Both the position numbers and the translations under genes were made by a program. 64,000 nt of DNA from Gemmatimonadota bacterium (GTDB lineage: Bacteria; Gemmatimonadota; Gemmatimonadetes; Longimicrobiales; Gaopeijiaceae): positions 62,001-126,000 of the forward strand of contig JAUIEJ010000013.1 of the NCBI GenBank assembly GCA_030428885.1, read 5' to 3'. The notes beneath the pieces were generated by a model, which worked only from the letters and a program-made list of their open reading frames with translations, made no database searches and was not told the DNA's origin. This document shows positions 18,036 to 27,710 of this stretch, one piece after another (the stretch's first letter is position 1; the number at the start of each line of letters is the position of its first letter).

Positions 18036-19644
18036 CCTGGTCGATGAGCTCCAGGTGGGCTCGCACGGCCTCGTTGGCCGGATTCAGTTCCAGAGCGCGG
18101 CGCCAGAGGAGACGGGCCACGTCGGTATCGGCGTCGCCGTGGGCCAGGGTGCCCAGGCGCAGGTAGACGTCGTCGCCCAGACGCGGATCGATCTTCACCG
18201 CCTTCTCGTAGTGGATGCGGGCCTGGTCCAGATCGCCCCGGCCGTAGGCCTGATCGCCCAGGGCCTTGTGGGCCTGGGCCGGCGCCGGGGTGAGGGCCAC
18301 GGCCCGGGTGTAGAGGGCCTCGGCGGTCTGGTGGTCGCCCCGCTCCTCCAGCGCCCCGGCGGTGTTCACCAGGAGGGGCCCGGACTCGGGATACAGTCCC
18401 AGCCCCTCCCGCCCCAGGGTGACGGCCCGATCGAGTTCGCCGGCCATGGCCGACGCCAGGACGGCCGTGGAGTAGAACAGCGCCGAGGGACGGCGCAGAT
18501 CGGCGTCGCCCCGGTAGTCCTGGAGTTCGCTCAGGGCCTCCACGGGCGCCCCGGCCTGGAGGAGCAGCACCCCCCGAGCCAGGGAGACCTCGGGATCCCC
18601 CGGGCGGGCCGCGTCGCACCGGCCCAGGGCCTCCAGCGCCTCGTCGAACCGCCCCAGCATCTCCAGCGTCAGGGCCCGATTCCGCTGCACCACCCACGCC
18701 GTGTCGCCCTCGGCGGGAATGCGATCGAAGAAGCGCAGGGCGTCGTCGTAGCGCCGACTCCGGAAGGCGATGAGCCCGAGTCGATGGAGGGCCGCCACGT
18801 TGGTGGGGTCCTTCTGCAGCACCGCGTTGAACTCCCGGGTGGCGTCTTCCAGCATCCCGGATCGGTAGAAGGCGACTCCCAGGTTCAGATGCTGGCGCAC
18901 CTGTTCGTCGATCTCGGGCCCGTCGGCCATACGTCGACCGGTCCGCTCCACGAAGCCGGCCTGGATCAGCCCGTAGAGGGCCTTCCCCACGTCGAACTCC
19001 ACCATGCCCGCCGCCGACACGATCTCCTGGACCGTGCGCTGGCCGTCCATGAGGGGCAGGATCCGGGACTGGTTCTCCTCCAGCTCCACGTCGGGCTCGT
19101 CGGCGGGGTCCTTGATGACCTCGAAGACCAGGTCGAACGACGGCACCTTCTTCTCGATGAGCGACCACTCGTCGACCCGCCGGGCCCCCTCCAGCAGGAG
19201 GCTCTCGGCCGGGATGTCCACCAGGAAGAAGCCCTCCTCCTCGGGCCGTTGATCGGCGTCGAAGTGGAAGTTGCCCCGGTTCCAGGAGAAGAGGTGGTAG
19301 ACCGCCTCCTCGATCTGCACCCGGATGAACCGGTGCAGGTCGTCGGTGGAGATGGTGCCCGCTTCCAGGAGGATCTCCCCCACCGGGACGCCGCGGCGTT
19401 CGGACTGGATCCGAACGGCCTCGTCGAGCTGGTCCTCGGTGATGACCCCGTTGCGCACCAGGAGCTCGCCCAGGCGGTCGGGTCGGTTGAGGAGCGAGGC
19501 GTAGATGACCCGCCCGTTCTCGAAGTAGACGTACCCGAAGTTGGAGCGGTCGGTGACGGAGAGGCAGCCCGTCTTCCGGCCCATGGCCAGAAGCTGGCAG
19601 ATGTCCGCCATGCTCACGTCCTGGAGGGCGCCTTCGATGGCCAT
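18028..19644 (-). CDS. DUF4388 (PATAN-like) protein with C-terminal TPR array
   Basis: 538 residues. Residues 1-160 are a DUF4388 domain: LQDVSMADICQLLAMGRKTG, GYVYFENGRVIYA, LGELLVRNGVITEDQL, and VYHLFSWNRGNFHF. A winged-helix-like linker follows (IVSAAGMVEFDVGKALYGLIQAG). From about 247 to the end there are roughly eight tetratricopeptide units (LGVAFYRSGMLEDATREFNA and similar), a protein-interaction scaffold. DUF4388/PATAN domains occur in bacterial and cyanobacterial signalling proteins. The ATG shares one base with the stop of the DnaA-like gene (TGATG), arguing for coupled translation. Confidence 0.92.
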   Translation of the reverse strand: MAIEGALQDVSMADICQLLAMGRKTGCLSVTDRSNFGYVYFENGRVIYASLLNRPDRLGELLVRNGVITEDQLDEAVRIQSERRGVPVGEILLEAGTISTDDLHRFIRVQIEEAVYHLFSWNRGNFHFDADQRPEEEGFFLVDIPAESLLLEGARRVDEWSLIEKKVPSFDLVFEVIKDPADEPDVELEENQSRILPLMDGQRTVQEIVSAAGMVEFDVGKALYGLIQAGFVERTGRRMADGPEIDEQVRQHLNLGVAFYRSGMLEDATREFNAVLQKDPTNVAALHRLGLIAFRSRRYDDALRFFDRIPAEGDTAWVVQRNRALTLEMLGRFDEALEALGRCDAARPGDPEVSLARGVLLLQAGAPVEALSELQDYRGDADLRRPSALFYSTAVLASAMAGELDRAVTLGREGLGLYPESGPLLVNTAGALEERGDHQTAEALYTRAVALTPAPAQAHKALGDQAYGRGDLDQARIHYEKAVKIDPRLGDDVYLRLGTLAHGDADTDVARLLWRRALELNPANEAVRAHLELIDQGG

Positions 19645-21710
19645 CAGTTCAGCTCCTCCACCAGGCGTTCATCCGGGTGGGGCCACCGCCACACCACCTT
19701 CTCGGGGGAGGGTCGCCAGGCCCGGCTGGTGGGGCTGGACGCCTCGAAATCCCCCCCCATGGGATCGGGGAGGAAGTCCTCGGGAGACACCTCCAGACGG
19801 GGCTTCTCGGGCGGCTCGTCGAAGAACAGCCCCCCCCGCCCGTCGCCCATGTCCAGCTCGTGGAGCGGGGGAATCACCGGAGGATCGTCGTCGGGCGACC
19901 CGATGCGCCCCGTGAAGGGATCGGTGTCGATGCCCGGACGGTGGTCGGCGCCCACCGCGGGGGCGGCCTCCTCCCCCGCCCCGTCGGCGCCCTCGAGGAA
20001 GTCGTCGCCCAGGTCGAACGACAGCCCCTGCCAGAAGGGATCGTCCTCCGGGGCCGGCATGGGGTCGACCAGGGTCCACTCCCGGGCGTCGGGGCCCAGG
20101 TCCCGGCCGTCCACCTCCACCACCAGCCCCCCCTCGAAACGGGAGCGGAGCCGCTCGTCGATGTCCTCCACCTTCGACGGCGGCCGATCGGCGGCCAGGA
20201 GCACCCGGGCGCCGCGGCGCTTGAGCGCCTCGAAGAGGTGGAAGAACTCGTCCTGGGCCCGCTCGGTCTCGGAAAGTTGCTCCACGCCGTAGACCAGGAG
20301 GAGATCCACCGTCCACCACCGCTCCCGCCACGCCCCGGCCACCCCTTCCGAGAGGGCCCGGATGAAGTCCTGGGCGAAATCGGCCACGGACGTGACGGCC
20401 ATGCGCCCGCCGGGGAACGCCGACCGGAACCCCCGGGCCGCCGAGGCCATGAGGCCCCGGGCCGCCGAGCCCTCCGAGTCCCACAGGAAGAGGGGGTTGT
20501 ACTGGGGCTTGTCCAGCGACACCAACTGGGCCGCCGCCTTGAGGGGAAGAGGCGGGAGCTGTTCCTCCAGTTCCCGGAGCGACGGCCCGGGGCCCACTTC
20601 CTTGAAGGGACGCACCCGCTCCCGCACCGACGCCAGGAGGGCCTCGGCCTCTTCCACCCGGTCCGGATCCTTCACCACGCTGGAGGCGGCTTCGGGCCAG
20701 GGGTTCTTCAAGCGGGTCAACTCGTCGTCGATCTCCCGGAGGCGGATCACGTCGTGTCGGAAGGCCTCGACCCGGCCCTGCCAGGACGAGGGCTCGACCT
20801 TGGCCTCCAGGGCGGTGCGGAGCCGGCGAGCCGTGAAGCCTTCCCGTTCGGCGGCCTCGGCCGCCTCGCGGTAGGCCTTCCGCCAGGGGGCCTCCTGGGT
20901 CACCACGGCGTCGGCCACGGCGCCGGCGACCTGATCCAGGAAGTCGTCGAACTCGGCGGCGGTGGCGGGGCCCGATTCCCGCGTTCCGGGCTCGGCGAAG
21001 TCGCCCATGAACGAGGGCACGTCGTCGGCGGTGACGGCCCGATCCTCGAGTTCCTGCACCGCCAGGATGCGGTTCAGGGCGCCGCCCAGCTCCCGGACGT
21101 TCTTGATGGGATACCGGGCCACGGCCTCGGCCACCCCCTCGCCCAGGACCTGCCCCCGTTCCTCCACCTTCCGCCGCACGATGGCCACCCGGGTCTCGAA
21201 CTCCGGGGGGGCGATGTCGACGATGAGTCCCCCGGAGAAGCGGGACACCAGGCGGGCGTCGAGACCGTTGATCTCCGAGGGCGGGCGATCGCTGGCCAGG
21301 ACGATCTGCCGCCCCGTACCCGTGAGGGAATCCAGCGTGGCCAGGAGCATCTCCTGGGCTTCGGGCTGGCCCGCGAGGAACTGGACGTCGTCCAGGAGGA
21401 GGATGTCCAGGTCCCGGTACCGGTCCCGGAGATCCTCCCGGGTGCCCTCCTCCAGCGCCTGGGCCAGAGCCGCCAGGTATTCCTCCAGCGTCTCGTAGTT
21501 GACCCGGAGGGGAGGCTCGGCCCGCTGGGCGTGATTCGCCACGGCCAGGAGCAGATGGGACTTGCCCAGCCCCGACGCCGCGTAGACGAAGAGCGGATTG
21601 TAGCTCTTGCCCGGAGACTCGGCCGCACGACGCGCGGCGGCGGAGGCCAGCCGATTGGCCGGCCCCACCACGAAGGTCTCGAAGGTGAGCTTCGGATCCG
21701 AATCCTTCAT
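19644..21710 (-). CDS. Tandem DnaA/Hda-type AAA+ protein, second domain degenerate
   Basis: 688 residues from the ATG at 21710; the frame stays open for 407 codons upstream but is antisense-like to rluD there. Domain 1 (about 8-240) is a DnaA-type AAA+ ATPase: YNPLFVYAASGLGKSHLL (Walker A 45-51), DILLLDDVQFL (Walker B), LASDRPPSEI (sensor 1) and ARLVSRFSGG. After a helical linker, domain 2 (about 400-545) repeats the plan, YNPLFLWDSEGS and LAADRPPSKV and ERLRSRFEGG, but the GKS is gone and the DD of Walker B is YG, so it should not hydrolyse ATP. No DnaA DNA-binding domain IV is present. The acidic tail is probably disordered. Role unknown; not the replication initiator. Confidence 0.9.
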   Translation of the reverse strand: MKDSDPKLTFETFVVGPANRLASAAARRAAESPGKSYNPLFVYAASGLGKSHLLLAVANHAQRAEPPLRVNYETLEEYLAALAQALEEGTREDLRDRYRDLDILLLDDVQFLAGQPEAQEMLLATLDSLTGTGRQIVLASDRPPSEINGLDARLVSRFSGGLIVDIAPPEFETRVAIVRRKVEERGQVLGEGVAEAVARYPIKNVRELGGALNRILAVQELEDRAVTADDVPSFMGDFAEPGTRESGPATAAEFDDFLDQVAGAVADAVVTQEAPWRKAYREAAEAAEREGFTARRLRTALEAKVEPSSWQGRVEAFRHDVIRLREIDDELTRLKNPWPEAASSVVKDPDRVEEAEALLASVRERVRPFKEVGPGPSLRELEEQLPPLPLKAAAQLVSLDKPQYNPLFLWDSEGSAARGLMASAARGFRSAFPGGRMAVTSVADFAQDFIRALSEGVAGAWRERWWTVDLLLVYGVEQLSETERAQDEFFHLFEALKRRGARVLLAADRPPSKVEDIDERLRSRFEGGLVVEVDGRDLGPDAREWTLVDPMPAPEDDPFWQGLSFDLGDDFLEGADGAGEEAAPAVGADHRPGIDTDPFTGRIGSPDDDPPVIPPLHELDMGDGRGGLFFDEPPEKPRLEVSPEDFLPDPMGGDFEASSPTSRAWRPSPEKVVWRWPHPDERLVEELN

Positions 21711-21811
21711 CGGCTGATCGGGGCGCTCCGCGGAGGATGGGGGGATCGAGCAGGGTCCCGCGGTTGGGACAAGTATCGGCCCCCCCGGGGGCGAATGAAA
21801 GCCCGGATGCC

Positions 21812-22804
21812 CTACGTTCCCATGGACTCCCGCGCCCAGCGGGCGGGCTCGGCCAGATCCGGGGGAAGGGGCGACTCGAACCGCATGCGTTCTCCCGTGA
21901 CCGGATGATGGAACGCCAACCGGGCGGCGTGGAGAAACTGGCGGGGCACGCGGCCGGCGAATTCCCGGGCCCAGGCCTGGACCGAGCCGCTCATGCCCCG
22001 CTCCCAGCCGGCGCCGTAGACCGCATCGCCCACCACCGGGTGCCCCAGGCTGGCCAGGTGGACCCGGATCTGGTGGGTACGCCCGGTCTGGAGCGCCACG
22101 TCCAGGAGTTCGGCAGCCGGCCAGCGCTCCCGGAGGCGGAACCGGGTGACGGCCCGGCGCCCGCCCTCCACCACGGCCATGCGCTTGCGTTGCCGAGGGT
22201 CGCGGCCGATGGGCCGATCCACCGTGACGGGGCTCTCGTCCAGATGGCCCCACGCCGCCGCCCGGTAGATGCGCTTCACCTCCCGGCGCCGCAGGGCGTC
22301 GGAGAGGGCGTGGTGGGCCCGATCGGTCTTGGCCACCACCAGGAGTCCCGACGTGTCGCGATCCAGACGGTGCACGATGCCCGGGCGGAGCCGCCCGCCC
22401 ACCCCCGACAGGTCGGTGAGGTGGTGGAGGAGAGCGTTGACCAGCGTGCCGTCCCGGTGGCCGGGGGCCGGGTGAACCACCATGCCCGCCGCCTTGTCCA
22501 CCACGGCCAGGTCGTCGTCCTCGTAGACCAGGGTGAGGGGGAGATCCTGGGCCACCAGGTCCACGGGCCGGGCCGGGGGCACGTCCACCTCGATCTCCAG
22601 CCCGGCCTCGGCGGCGTCGGACTTCCGGGGGACCCGCCAGGGCTCGGCGCCCACCCGCACCCGGACCCGGCGTTCGGCCAGGAGCTTGTGGAGGCGGGTG
22701 CGGGACAGGTCGAGACGGGCCGCGAGCCAGGCGTCGAGCCGCTCGCCTCCGTCTCCGGCGTCGTCGGGCACCCGCAGGCGGTGGACCCGCCCGGCGTTCG
22801 TCAC
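21812..22804 (-). CDS. rluD: RluD-family 23S rRNA pseudouridine synthase
   Basis: 330 residues: S4 RNA-binding domain at the N-terminus (ERLDAWLAARLDLSRTRLHKLL), then the catalytic domain with the aspartate motif HRLDRDTSGLLV and the closing RTHQIRVHLASLGHPVVGD block. Makes pseudouridines in large-subunit rRNA. The GTG start overlaps the ileS stop by 4 bases. Specific target positions cannot be told from sequence; RluD versus RluC is judged on the S4 domain and motif text. Confidence 0.93.
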   Translation of the reverse strand: MTNAGRVHRLRVPDDAGDGGERLDAWLAARLDLSRTRLHKLLAERRVRVRVGAEPWRVPRKSDAAEAGLEIEVDVPPARPVDLVAQDLPLTLVYEDDDLAVVDKAAGMVVHPAPGHRDGTLVNALLHHLTDLSGVGGRLRPGIVHRLDRDTSGLLVVAKTDRAHHALSDALRRREVKRIYRAAAWGHLDESPVTVDRPIGRDPRQRKRMAVVEGGRRAVTRFRLRERWPAAELLDVALQTGRTHQIRVHLASLGHPVVGDAVYGAGWERGMSGSVQAWAREFAGRVPRQFLHAARLAFHHPVTGERMRFESPLPPDLAEPARWARESMGT

Positions 22805-25800
22805 GTGGCGGGCGCCGGGGCCCGAGCCAGGGTGAGCCGCGCCGCGACGCCGTCCAGGTCCACCTCCTGGTCGCCGTCCCAGGCCCCCTCGGGAGCCGCC
22901 GCCACGGTGACGTCCACGGCCAGGGTCTCACCCCCGATGAAGGTCCGCCACGCCTCGGCCGGACCCCGCACCGCCTCGGGGCCGTAGATGCCCAGGACGA
23001 TGCGGTCGGTCACCTCGAGCCCCGAGTCCTTCCGAAGCCGCTGGATCCGGTTGACCAGCTCCCGGGCCATGCCTTCGGCTCGAAGGGCGTCGTCGAGGGT
23101 GGGGTCCAGGGCCACGGTGTGGCCGTTTTCACTCCGCACCACCCACTCGCCCTCGGCGGTCTCCTCCACCTCGAGATCGCCGTCCTCCACCGTCCACTCC
23201 CGACCGTCGAGCTCGAAGGTCACGGGCTCGCCGCTCCGGAACGCGGCCAGGGCGTCGGACGACAGGGCCCGGAGGGCGTTGGCGGCGTCGTTGGTGGACT
23301 TTCCGAACCGGGGTCCCAGGGCTCGGTAGTTGGGCCGCGCCTCCAGGCGCACCAGCCCTTCGGCCGAGGCCCGGAAGGCGATCTCCTTCACGTTGAGTTC
23401 GTCCTTCACCGTCTCCAGCACCTCGTCCCGGATCTCCCGCCCTCCGGGCACCACGGCCTGGAGACGGCGGAGGGGCTGCCGCACCCGGATCTTCACTTCT
23501 TCCCGGGCGGCGCGGCCCAGGGACACCAGCACCCGGGCCGCCTCCATCTCGGCCTCCAGCGCCTCGTCCCGGCGGCCCGCCACCGGGTCGGGAAACGCCT
23601 CCAGGTGGACCGACCGGTCGCCGGTGAGGGAGCGATGCAGCCAGTCGGCCACGAAGGGGGTCACGGGGGCCACCAGACGGGCCACCACCGTCAGCGCTTC
23701 GTGGAGCGTGGCGAAGGCGGCCCGGGCGTCGGCGGCGTCCCCGTTGCCCCAGAACCGGCTCCGGGTGCGCCGCACGTACCAGTTGCTGAGCTCGTCGACG
23801 AAGTCGGTGACCTCCCGGTACGCCCGGGTGAGCTGGTAGCCGTCGAGTTCGGCGCCCACCCGGGCCGTGAGGCCGTCGAGGCGCGACAGGAGCCACCGGT
23901 CCAGGATGGGCCGCTGGGCGGGCTCCGGGTCGGCGTCCGAGGGCGCCCACCCCTCGATGGAGGCGTAGAGGGCGAAGAACCGGTAGGTGTTGGCCAGGGT
24001 GTCGAAGAACTTCCGGGCCGACTCCTTCACGCCCTCGGGGTCGTAGCGCTTGGGCACCCAGGGGTTGGACACCGTCATGAGGTACCACCGCACGGCGTCG
24101 GCGCCGTGCTCCGCCACGGCGTCCCACGGATTCACCGTGTTGCCCCGGGACTTGGACATCTTCTGACCCTCGGCGTCGAGGATCAGGTCGTTCACCACCA
24201 CGTTGCGGAAGGCCGTGCCCCGCCCCAGGAGCGTGGAGATGGCCATGAGGGAGTAGAACCACCCCCGGGTCTGGTCCAGCCCCTCGCAGATGAAGTCCGC
24301 GGGGAAGTGGGCCTCGAACTCGGACTCGTTCTCGAAGGGATAGTGCCACTGGGCGTAGGGCATGGATCCCGAGTCGAACCAGACGTCCACCACCCCCGGC
24401 GTGCGCCGCATGGTGCCGCCGCAGTCGCAGGTCCAGGTGAGTTCGTCGATGAAGGGCCGGTGGGGGTCGAAGTCGTCGCCCAGAGGCCCCACCTTCTCGG
24501 CCAGTTCGGCGTACGACCCGATCCACACCACGTGGTCGGGGTCGCTCTCGCAGACCCAGGCCGGGAGGGGCGTACCCCAGTAGCGGTCCCGGGAGAGGGC
24601 CCAGTCGACGTTGCCCTTGAGCCACTCGCCGAAGCGCTTCTCGCCCACCTCGGGCGGGTGCCAGGCCACCTGGGCGTTGTTGGCCAGCATCTCGTCCTTG
24701 CGGGTCGAGGTGGCGGCGAACCACGAGTCCCGGGCCATGTAGATGAGGGGCGAACGACAGCGCCAGCAGTGGGGGTAGCTGTGGACCTCCGTGCCGTGCT
24801 CGAAGAGGAGTCCCCGGGACTCCAGTTCGGCCACCACGGGGGCGTCGGCGTCCTTCACGAAGAGGCCGCCCACCACGGGCAGGTCGGCCCGGAAGACCCC
24901 GGCGTCGTCGATGGGGCGCAACATGGGCAGATCGTGCCGCTGCCCGGCCGCGTAGTCGTCGGCGCCGAAGGCCGGCGCCATGTGGACGATCCCGGTTCCG
25001 TCGTCGGCGCTGACGAAGTCCTCCAGGACCACGGTCCAGGCGTTGCCCACCTCGGCGGGCGCGGGCACGAGGTCCACGGGGCGACCGTAGCGCAGCCCGG
25101 CCAGATCCCGGCCGACGTGCTCGGCCACGATGGTGGCGCCCTCCCCCACCACGGCCTCCACCCGGTCCCGGGCCAGAAGCAGGCGGCGGCCCTGGTGCTC
25201 CACCTCCACGTACGCGAGGTCGGGGTGTACGGCCAGCCCCACGTTGGACGGCACGGTCCACGGCGTGGTGGTCCAGACCGCGAAGTACCGGCCGTCGGGC
25301 GAGCCGTCGGGCCCCAGCACCGGGGCCAGGAACGTCAGGGAGGGGTCCTCCACGTCTTCGTAGCCCTGAGCCACCTCGTGGCTCGACAGCGCCGTGCCGC
25401 AGCGAGGGCAGTAGGGCACGCTCTTGTGCCCCCGGTACAGCAGCCCCTCGTCGGCGAACCGCTTGAGGATCCACCACGCCGACTCGATGTAGTCGGCGTG
25501 GAAGGTCACGTACGGCCGGGAGTAATCGAGCCAGTACCCGATGCGCTCCGAGAGGCGCTCCCACTCCTCCTTGTACGTGAAGACCGAATCCCGGCAGGCC
25601 TGGTTGAAGCGCTCGATCCCCAGCGCCTCGATCTCGGGCTTGCCGCTGATGCCGAGCTTCTTCTCGGCCTCGATCTCCACCGGGAGCCCGTGGGTGTCCC
25701 ACCCGGCGATGCGGGTGACCGACCGGCCCCGCATGGTCTGGTAGCGGCACACCAGGTCCTTGATGGCCCGGCTGATGATGTGATGCAGCCCGGGGCGCCC

Positions 25801-25950
25801 GTTGGCCGTGGGCGGGCCCTCGTAGAAGACGAAAGGTTCGCCGTCGGCGGTGGCCTCGAGGGTGGCGCGGAACAGGTCTTCCTGACGCCAACGCGGCAGG
25901 AGGCCTTCCTCCAGGTCCTGGAGGGAGGAGGGAAATTCGGGATAGGACAT
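22801..25950 (-). CDS. ileS: Isoleucyl-tRNA synthetase, type 2, with GXHH signature
   Basis: 1049 residues. Charges tRNA-Ile. The usual HIGH motif is replaced: GPPTANGRP is followed by GLHH (54-57), so the first and third positions are swapped (GXHH instead of HXGH). The KMSKS loop is normal (KMSKSRGN). The editing domain, a Cys pair in PYCPRCGTALSSHE, and a eukaryote-like C-terminus (EGMARELVNRIQRLRKDSGL) mark the IleS2 type. IleS2 enzymes resist mupirocin, and a GXHH subgroup is reported as hyper-resistant. Start at 25950 is one base beyond the DivIVA stop. Confidence 0.97.
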   Translation of the reverse strand: MSYPEFPSSLQDLEEGLLPRWRQEDLFRATLEATADGEPFVFYEGPPTANGRPGLHHIISRAIKDLVCRYQTMRGRSVTRIAGWDTHGLPVEIEAEKKLGISGKPEIEALGIERFNQACRDSVFTYKEEWERLSERIGYWLDYSRPYVTFHADYIESAWWILKRFADEGLLYRGHKSVPYCPRCGTALSSHEVAQGYEDVEDPSLTFLAPVLGPDGSPDGRYFAVWTTTPWTVPSNVGLAVHPDLAYVEVEHQGRRLLLARDRVEAVVGEGATIVAEHVGRDLAGLRYGRPVDLVPAPAEVGNAWTVVLEDFVSADDGTGIVHMAPAFGADDYAAGQRHDLPMLRPIDDAGVFRADLPVVGGLFVKDADAPVVAELESRGLLFEHGTEVHSYPHCWRCRSPLIYMARDSWFAATSTRKDEMLANNAQVAWHPPEVGEKRFGEWLKGNVDWALSRDRYWGTPLPAWVCESDPDHVVWIGSYAELAEKVGPLGDDFDPHRPFIDELTWTCDCGGTMRRTPGVVDVWFDSGSMPYAQWHYPFENESEFEAHFPADFICEGLDQTRGWFYSLMAISTLLGRGTAFRNVVVNDLILDAEGQKMSKSRGNTVNPWDAVAEHGADAVRWYLMTVSNPWVPKRYDPEGVKESARKFFDTLANTYRFFALYASIEGWAPSDADPEPAQRPILDRWLLSRLDGLTARVGAELDGYQLTRAYREVTDFVDELSNWYVRRTRSRFWGNGDAADARAAFATLHEALTVVARLVAPVTPFVADWLHRSLTGDRSVHLEAFPDPVAGRRDEALEAEMEAARVLVSLGRAAREEVKIRVRQPLRRLQAVVPGGREIRDEVLETVKDELNVKEIAFRASAEGLVRLEARPNYRALGPRFGKSTNDAANALRALSSDALAAFRSGEPVTFELDGREWTVEDGDLEVEETAEGEWVVRSENGHTVALDPTLDDALRAEGMARELVNRIQRLRKDSGLEVTDRIVLGIYGPEAVRGPAEAWRTFIGGETLAVDVTVAAAPEGAWDGDQEVDLDGVAARLTLARAPAPAT

Positions 25951-25951
25951 G

Positions 25952-26938
25952 TCAGCCGTCGCGGCCTCCGGCCTCGCCGGTATCCTCGAGGAGCTCCCGC
26001 AGGGTCGAGCCCCGACCGGTTCCGGCCTCGGCCAGCGACCGCACGTTCGACCCGGGGTGGGGGAGGATCGTGGCGTCGGCTTCCATCTCCTCCAACGAGG
26101 GGGCCAGGCCCTCCACGGGCATGGCGTCGTCGTCGTCGTCGTCCGCGGGGACCGCATCCACCACGGCCATCACGGCCGCCGGGGCCGGCTCGGCCCGGGG
26201 TTCGGGCTCGGCCTCCGGCTCGGGCGCGGGCTCGTCGGCCCGGGCCACCGCCGCCTCTTCGGGGTCGCCCGAGTCGGCTTCGTCGACCTCGGGAGCCTCG
26301 TCGACCTCGGGGGCCGCCGCCTCGGGCTCGTCCATGTCGAACACCGGAGGGGCGTCCATGCGCCCGCCGCCCAGGTCGAGTTCCACCGCCACCTCGTCCA
26401 GGGGCGAGCGGTTGGCCTCGATCTGGACCATTTCGATCTGGCGCTGGAGCAACTGCCGGTACGACTCGATGAACCGGGTGCGCTGGGACTCCATCTCGGC
26501 CAGGGCCTGCTTTCGCTCCTCGAGCTGCCGCTCGGCGTCGGCCAGCATGCCCTTGGCTTCGAGGCGGGCCTCCTTGGCCAGGTGTTCGGCCTCGTGCTCG
26601 GCCTCCTTCCGGAGCTGGCTGACCTCCCGCTCGGCTTCCTTCCGGAGCTGGTCGGCTTCGCGCTGGGCCTGGCCCCGGATCTCGTCCCGGAGCTGCTGGG
26701 CCGTGACCAGCGCCTCGTTGACCGCCCGCTCCCTCCCCCCCAGGGAGACCACCTGCTCGCCCAGGCGCTGGGCGCGCTCCTCCAGGGTGATGTTGGCCTT
26801 CACCAGTTCTTCCATGCGCTCGGCCACGAGCTCCAGGAAGCCGTCGACCTCCAGGGGGTCGTATCCCCGCAGGCTCTTCTTGAAGTCGCCGCGCTTCTTG
26901 CGGACGTCCAGAGGTGTCAGGTCGATCATGCTCGCCAT
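25952..26938 (-). CDS. DivIVA-domain protein with long acidic/proline tail
   Basis: 328 residues. The first ~60 match DivIVA/GpsB (MIDLTPLDVRKKRGDFKKSL, RGYDPLEVDGFLELV), a membrane-curvature and polar-targeting module. Residues 60-170 form a coiled coil with repeated LRKEAE-type heptads. The last ~150 residues are Ala/Pro/Glu-rich and disordered, including six Asp in a row. A start three codons later (26929) is equally possible. It overlaps nothing but sits 1 base from ileS and 37 from yggS. In a diderm it is likely a polarity or envelope-growth organiser; this is inference. Confidence 0.92.
   Translation of the reverse strand: MASMIDLTPLDVRKKRGDFKKSLRGYDPLEVDGFLELVAERMEELVKANITLEERAQRLGEQVVSLGGRERAVNEALVTAQQLRDEIRGQAQREADQLRKEAEREVSQLRKEAEHEAEHLAKEARLEAKGMLADAERQLEERKQALAEMESQRTRFIESYRQLLQRQIEMVQIEANRSPLDEVAVELDLGGGRMDAPPVFDMDEPEAAAPEVDEAPEVDEADSGDPEEAAVARADEPAPEPEAEPEPRAEPAPAAVMAVVDAVPADDDDDDAMPVEGLAPSLEEMEADATILPHPGSNVRSLAEAGTGRGSTLRELLEDTGEAGGRDG
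26126..26143. repeat. (GTC)6 trinucleotide repeat in divIVA
   Basis: Six perfect GTC units on the plus strand, encoding a run of six aspartates in the disordered tail of the DivIVA protein. In-frame length change would only alter the acidic run. Confidence 0.9.
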
Positions 26939-26975
26939 CCCGTAGCTCGACGGGGCGCGTGGCGCCCCACCTGGT

Positions 26976-27710
26976 TCAAGCCCCCCCGGCGGTGCCGGGG
27001 CGTGCGCCGAAGAGGGCCGTTCCGATACGCACCATAGTGCTCCCCTCCTCCACCGCAAAGCGGAGGTCGTTGCTCATCCCCATGGACAGATGGGGTCCCA
27101 CACGGGGATCCTGCCGGCGCACCTCCTCCAGCAGGCGCCGCAGGGCACCGAAGGTCCCCCGCAGAACCCCTTCATCATCGACGAAGGGGGCCATGGTCAT
27201 GAGTCCCTGCACATTCAGACCCGACCACCCCGCCACCTCCAGGATCTCGTCCAGGGCGCCGGGGCCCTGGAATCCGCCCTTGGCGTCCTCGCCCGAGGTG
27301 TTCACCTGGATCAGCACGTTCACCGGCGGCCCCGCTTCCGGGGCCAGACGGTGGATCCGCTCGGCGAGACGCAGGGAATCCACCGCGTGGATCCAATCCA
27401 CTACCGGAAGAAGATCGGACACCTTGCGACGTTGGATGTGCCCGATCATGTGCCACGTCACGCCTCCCCGCCCCACCTCCGCCACCTTTCCCGCCAGCTC
27501 CGCCACCCGGTTCTCACCCAGGTCCGTGAGTCCGGCGTCCAGCGCCGCTCGCACGGCCTCCACCGGATGTCCCTTGGTGACGGCCACCACCCGCACGTCC
27601 CCGGGGTCGCGACCGGCGGAGGCCGCGGCCCGGGCGATCTCGCCGCGCACCCGGGGAAGGGCGTCGGAGAGGCGCTCGGCGTAGGACTGGACGGTGAGGG
27701 TCTCGGACAT
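26976..27710 (-). CDS. yggS: YggS-family pyridoxal phosphate homeostasis protein
   Basis: 244 residues, single fold-type III barrel domain. PLP-binding lysine in VVAVTKGHP, plus GENRVAEL, WHMIGHIQRRK, LIQVNTSGEDAKGGF and the closing LSMGMSNDLRFAVEEGSTMVRIGTALFG blocks (read as separate motifs). Binds PLP and balances vitamin B6 and amino-acid pools; no substrate known. An ATG at 27710 is preferred over a TTG two codons earlier. First gene of the yggS-divIVA-ileS-rluD run, as is common for yggS beside division genes. Confidence 0.94.
   Translation of the reverse strand: MSETLTVQSYAERLSDALPRVRGEIARAAASAGRDPGDVRVVAVTKGHPVEAVRAALDAGLTDLGENRVAELAGKVAEVGRGGVTWHMIGHIQRRKVSDLLPVVDWIHAVDSLRLAERIHRLAPEAGPPVNVLIQVNTSGEDAKGGFQGPGALDEILEVAGWSGLNVQGLMTMAPFVDDEGVLRGTFGALRRLLEEVRRQDPRVGPHLSMGMSNDLRFAVEEGSTMVRIGTALFGARPGTAGGA

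What the first reader, a model, noticed from the sequence alone, without database searches (positions are those of the whole stretch)
25773..25794. IleS with swapped signature motif GXHH (GLHH at residues 54-57)
Seen: after GPPTANGRP the conserved HXGH reads G-L-H-H. Known: IleS2 enzymes with GXHH instead of HXGH have been described as hyper-resistant to mupirocin while remaining active. The rest of the protein has the IleS2 C-terminus. Inference: this organism should tolerate mupirocin through its only visible isoleucyl-tRNA synthetase.
Basis: partly seen in the sequence, partly recalled or inferred. Interest (0 to 1): 0.65.

Follow-up and report, generated by a model that had tools for sequence, protein, structure and literature searches.

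The report
Mupirocin-resistant-type isoleucine tRNA synthetase
This bacterium's only isoleucine-tRNA-charging enzyme has a swapped active-site motif (GLHH for HxGH) that in tested relatives makes the enzyme almost immune to the antibiotic mupirocin; the variant is published and nearly universal in this bacterial phylum, so it is an ordinary inherited trait here.

Summary
Window 22801-25950 (-) encodes a 1049-aa isoleucyl-tRNA synthetase. Residues 54-57 (DNA 25780-25791) read GLHH exactly where HxGH lies in the alignments, including that to the solved Priestia IleRS2. It is a type-2 enzyme (DUF5915 C-terminus) with intact KMSKS and editing-site residues, and it is the only ileS found in the 95%-complete genome. 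Mupirocin was not tested on this protein.

What I add is context. The genome is a Gemmatimonadota (nearest named relative Longimicrobiales). Of 395 genomes sampled from the phylum, 372 carry a GxHH IleRS2, 6 only an HxGx-type enzyme, and in 17 no ileS N-terminus was found. The window gene is in the vertically inherited phylum clade, in its conserved yggS-divIVA-ileS setting. It is therefore an ancestral housekeeping trait and not an acquired resistance gene. Relatives that lack GxHH carry a different ileS near yggS, and one relative keeps both types. Verdict: real, correctly read, already explained; new member of a known kind.

The parts
22801..25950 (-). ileS, isoleucyl-tRNA synthetase type 2 (1049 aa)
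   Evidence: TIGR00392 886 bits (cut-off 621), PF00133, PF08264, PF19302; best PDB relatives are PmIleRS2 8c8w/8c8v
25780..25791 (-). Swapped class I signature motif G54-L55-H56-H57 (GxHH in place of HxGH)
   Evidence: Translation; alignment to HVGH of wild-type PmIleRS2; 372 of 395 phylum genomes have GxHH
24148..24162 (-). KMSKS loop (residues 597-601), intact
   Evidence: QKMSKSRGN in the translation; K597, S599, K600 invariant in A2. Coordinates calculated from residue numbers
24955..25275 (-). Editing (CP1) domain landmarks: WTTTPWT at 226-232 through D332 of GTGIVHMAPAFGADD
   Evidence: T227-T229, N236 and D332 invariant in A2; D334A is an editing-deficient mutant of S. griseus IleRS (PMC4861432); equivalence of D332 and D334 is my inference. 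Coordinates calculated
22825..23415 (-). IleRS2-type C-terminal domain, DUF5915 (residues 846-1042)
   Evidence: PF19302 164.7 bits. Coordinates calculated
25952..27058 (-). divIVA-domain gene directly upstream (ORF limits)
   Evidence: PF05103
26976..27716 (-). yggS-type gene, conserved upstream neighbour of ileS
   Evidence: PF01168; found near ileS across the phylum
21812..22804 (-). RluA-family pseudouridine synthase, overlaps the ileS stop by 4 nt
   Evidence: PF00849

Best explanation
The gene is the housekeeping isoleucyl-tRNA synthetase, type 2, of a Gemmatimonadota bacterium, with the naturally swapped GxHH signature motif. Shown here: the motif, its register, the IleRS2 domains, single copy, vertical inheritance and near-universality in the phylum. 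Inferred from characterised relatives: His56 takes over the catalytic role of the first His of HxGH in amino-acid activation, because the IleRS2 helix tip is shifted; the same histidine clashes with mupirocin bound in the cleft between this motif and the KMSKS loop, so Ki rises to the high-micromolar or millimolar range. The cell should therefore tolerate mupirocin at the target. The trait is an ancestral property of the lineage and not a recent response to the drug.
For: Motif and register. IleRS2 domains. Only one ileS in the genome. In the tree (motif columns removed) the window row sits with same-genus and same-family rows, all GLHH. 360 of 395 phylum genomes match a strict GxHH DNA pattern; a further 12 were verified by translation, 372 in all; the HxGH pattern is found in 6. 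Conserved yggS-ileS neighbourhood. Mechanism and Ki values: PMC10485003, PMC4861432.
Against: No enzyme of this phylum has been assayed in the papers I read. The published GVHH mutants of PmIleRS2 and TtIleRS2 reached only 460 and 35 uM, so GxHH alone does not guarantee millimolar Ki. The EG motif whose glycine binds mupirocin in IleRS1, and which S. griseus IleRS lacks, is present here (E556-G557), so resistance could be lower than in S. griseus.
Confidence: 0.93

Rival explanations
1. The swapped motif was acquired recently (horizontal gene or allele) as a specific mupirocin-resistance determinant of this organism.
For: GxHH confers hyper-resistance in tested IleRS2 (PMC10485003), and ileS2 genes do occur on plasmids.
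Against: The window gene nests in the phylum's own clade, in the conserved yggS neighbourhood, and 372 of 395 phylum genomes share the motif.
Confidence: 0.03
2. GxHH in this lineage is a neutral or catalytically driven active-site solution fixed in an ancestor; mupirocin resistance is a by-product and not what selection acts on. (This concerns why the motif is there and is compatible with the best explanation of what it does.)
For: Also the rule in the Bacteroidota and Anaerolineae relatives sampled. Phylum members that lack it carry an HYGH IleRS2 or an IleRS1 near yggS, so the trait can be lost. The natural DrIleRS2 shows little catalytic cost (PMC10485003).
Against: Sequence cannot separate ancient selection from drift, and the S. 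griseus authors argue for mupirocin in soil as the selective agent (PMC4861432).
Confidence: 0.5
3. The protein is a catalytically impaired or non-housekeeping paralogue, and another synthetase charges tRNA-Ile.
For: None found; the first His of HxGH is catalytically important in other class I enzymes.
Against: No second ileS above cut-off; the best other hit is a ValRS-like protein with HMGH and all score far below cut-off; KMSKS and editing residues are invariant; G/AxHH IleRS2s are active.
Confidence: 0.02

Closest known systems
G/AxHH-type IleRS2 (Deinococcus radiodurans ALHH, Streptomyces griseus; PMC10485003, PMC4861432)
   Same: Swapped motif at the HxGH site, IleRS2 architecture
   Different: Phylum not biochemically studied in the papers read; second motif residue Leu; EG motif retained, unlike S. 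griseus
Priestia megaterium IleRS2 (PDB 8c8u/8c8v/8c8w/8c9d)
   Same: Closest solved relative over residues 9-1007; 8c8w carries GVHH at the motif
   Different: Natural PmIleRS2 has HVGH and a Ki of about 1 uM; the organism also has an IleRS1
Staphylococcal MupA/MupB
   Same: Related IleRS2-type, mupirocin-resistant enzymes (821 and 801 bits)
   Different: Far below the curated cut-off of 1900 bits; acquired and plasmid-borne; not an orthologue of the window gene

Membership tests
IleRS2 with non-canonical G/AxHH motif | Isoleucyl-tRNA synthetase | tested here: met
   TIGR00392 886.2 bits against cut-off 621.4
IleRS2 with non-canonical G/AxHH motif | Type 2 (eukaryote-like) architecture and C-terminus | tested here: met
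   DUF5915; best PDB hits are PmIleRS2, then T. thermophilus and eukaryotic IleRS; IleRS1 chains score far lower
IleRS2 with non-canonical G/AxHH motif | G or A at first and H at third position of the signature motif | tested here: met
   GLHH at 54-57
IleRS2 with non-canonical G/AxHH motif | Active aminoacylation | not testable with these tools
   Indirect only: single-copy essential function, conserved catalytic residues
IleRS2 with non-canonical G/AxHH motif | Mupirocin Ki in the high-micromolar to millimolar range | not testable with these tools
   Needs an ATP/PPi exchange assay
MupA/MupB acquired mupirocin resistance | Score above the NCBIfam exception cut-off | tested here: not met
   821.3 and 801.4 bits against 1900
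MupA/MupB acquired mupirocin resistance | Acquired, on a mobile element | tested here: not met
   Vertical placement and conserved neighbourhood

The most novel reading that the evidence does not exclude
Gemmatimonadota offer a natural experiment on the motif swap: a phylum-wide GxHH IleRS2 in which a few lineages carry instead an HYGH IleRS2 or an IleRS1 near the yggS neighbour (as if displaced in place), one genome keeps both GLHH and HYGH enzymes, and two carry a distant second GxHH type. [quoted passage not shown] griseus IleRS does, a whole phylum would translate without that checkpoint.
Probability: 0.15. Interest if true: 0.4.

Novelty: new member of a known kind. Interest (0 to 1): 0.17.

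Why it matters
It adds a whole, largely uncultured phylum to the organisms expected to be target-resistant to mupirocin, and indicates that this resistance is ancestral and housekeeping there. It would matter for selective media and for resistome surveys, which should not score such genes as acquired resistance. The rare GxHH-lacking relatives give natural pairs for testing what the swap costs or gains.

Tried and rejected
Co-varying residues: on 89 GxHH and 10 HxGH IleRS2 rows only positions 54 and 56 separate the two classes completely; the weaker columns are confounded with phylogeny, so no compensatory residue is claimed. Suspected third motif variant in genus g5, which matched neither DNA pattern: rejected, it is TSNARPGLHH, a pattern miss. 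Defence-system library: no hit. A bare HxGH pattern over the whole own genome was too loose to be informative.

Full report
Observation. Translation of window 22801-25950 on the minus strand gives a 1049-residue protein beginning MSYPEFPSSL. Residues 42-66 read [25 protein letters not shown], and residues 54-57, encoded by 25780-25791, are GLHH. In the HMMER alignment to the wild-type Priestia megaterium IleRS2 chain (8c8v, [18 protein letters not shown]) the block is ungapped, so G54, H56 and H57 stand at the first, third and fourth motif positions; the top-scoring PDB chain, 8c8w, carries GVHH there.

What the protein is. TIGR00392 matches at 886 bits (cut-off 621), with PF00133, PF08264 and the C-terminal PF19302 (DUF5915) domain. 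The KMSKS loop is intact (QKMSKSRGN), and the editing-site residues T227-T229, N236 and D332 are invariant in a 29-row alignment. MupA and MupB models match the family in general but at well under half of their curated cut-off, so it is not one of the acquired staphylococcal genes.

Copy number. In the window's own genome (5.39 Mb, 23 contigs, 95.4% complete) this is the only match above the ileS cut-off; the remaining matches score far lower, and the best of them is a ValRS-like protein (PPPNVTAVLHMGH). A second ileS in the missing 5% cannot be excluded.

Distribution in the phylum. Named relatives show the organism is a Gemmatimonadota close to a Longimicrobiales bacterium (L009, 80% identity). 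A strict DNA pattern for GPP(T/S)ANGxPGxHH is found in 360 of 395 phylum genomes. Seven genomes of one genus in the window's own family read TSNARPGLHH and were missed by the pattern; G026 and G105 have GTHH, G328 has GIHH, and G311 and G379 have GVHH in a much more distant IleRS (GPITANNPMGVHH, about 34% identity). That makes 372. Six have only an HxGx-type enzyme: G034, G096 and G140 an HYGH IleRS2, G177 and G335 an HLGH IleRS1-like enzyme, and G097 HLGT. In 17, mostly drafts, no ileS N-terminus was found. G006 has both a GLHH and an HYGH enzyme. Outside the phylum, the Bacteroidota and Anaerolineae relatives fetched are nearly all GxHH.

Descent. A FastTree tree on 101 rows with the motif columns removed places the window enzyme with its genus and family, inside a Gemmatimonadota clade that is entirely GxHH. 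The tree is quick, and its deep branches should not be over-read. Upstream of ileS lie divIVA and yggS, then exbD/exbB-type, cdaA, folP and ftsH genes; yggS lies near ileS in most relatives that hold enough flank. In G034, G096, G177 and G097 the HxGx-type ileS lies downstream of a yggS homologue, and in G034 and G096 ftsH is nearby too; in G140 yggS is about 1.5 kb away on the opposite strand. This is what in-place displacement of the native gene would leave, but it is an inference from gene order. The extra HYGH copy of G006 lies elsewhere, between SusC/SusD-like genes.

Function and mechanism. The motif and its effect are published. PMC10485003 found G/AxHH in 86 of 379 IleRSs and measured Ki 6.6 mM for the natural ALHH enzyme of Deinococcus radiodurans, 8.1 uM after change to HVGH, and 460 and 35 uM for two engineered GVHH IleRS2s against 1.08 and 0.20 uM for their HVGH parents. 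IleRS1 enzymes cannot accommodate the swap. The structural argument is that the IleRS2 helix tip is displaced so that the third-position histidine reaches the catalytic position, while the same histidine would clash with bound mupirocin. S. [quoted passage not shown] For the window enzyme all of this is inference by homology.

Assessment. Observation confirmed; interpretation supported as a prediction. The finding is an ordinary, vertically inherited member of a described enzyme variant. The main addition is the near-universality in Gemmatimonadota with a handful of natural exceptions. No paper I found discusses Gemmatimonadota together with this motif (one search lists only resistome surveys and unrelated works), but the search covers open-access papers only.

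Noticed in passing
L160 4001-7045 / NZ_CP095404.2 445673-448828 (Rhodococcus opacus plasmid): A GTHH-type ileS lies inside an NRPS-like cluster (condensation, AMP-binding and phosphopantetheine-binding ORFs). This suggests a self-resistance copy and a product that targets IleRS; several NRPS ORFs look fragmented in the annotation.
   Followed up: partly
L125/L156 and L117 (genome G006): One Gemmatimonadota genome of the window's order carries both a GLHH IleRS2 and an HYGH IleRS2 in unrelated neighbourhoods: a natural pair for side-by-side kinetics.
   Followed up: partly
L157, L198, L199, L200, L201: HxGx-type ileS genes near yggS, the usual neighbour of the GxHH gene, as if the native gene had been displaced in place.
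   Followed up: partly
L126 (genome G097): IleRS1-like enzyme with HLGT: fourth His of the signature motif replaced by Thr; relatives L127 and L152 have HLGH. Sequencing error not excluded.
   Followed up: no
L173, L174, L191 (genomes G379, G311): Two genomes of the window's order carry a distant second GxHH IleRS type (GPITANNPMGVHH, about 34% identity), and no phylum-type ileS N-terminus was found in them.
   Followed up: no
window 19644-21900 (-): Protein with two Bac_DnaA ATPase-domain matches in tandem, just downstream of the RluA gene: a DnaA/Hda-like protein of unclear role.
   Followed up: no
L153, L154 (genome G075, single contig): Two overlapping ileS fragments that differ by 17% in DNA at distant places in one contig, probably a mixed-strain assembly artefact.
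   Followed up: partly
window 22801-22804: ileS runs straight into the RluA gene with a 4-nt overlap; lspA, which lies between ileS and RluA in Paenibacillus, is on another contig (C8) in this genome.
   Followed up: partly
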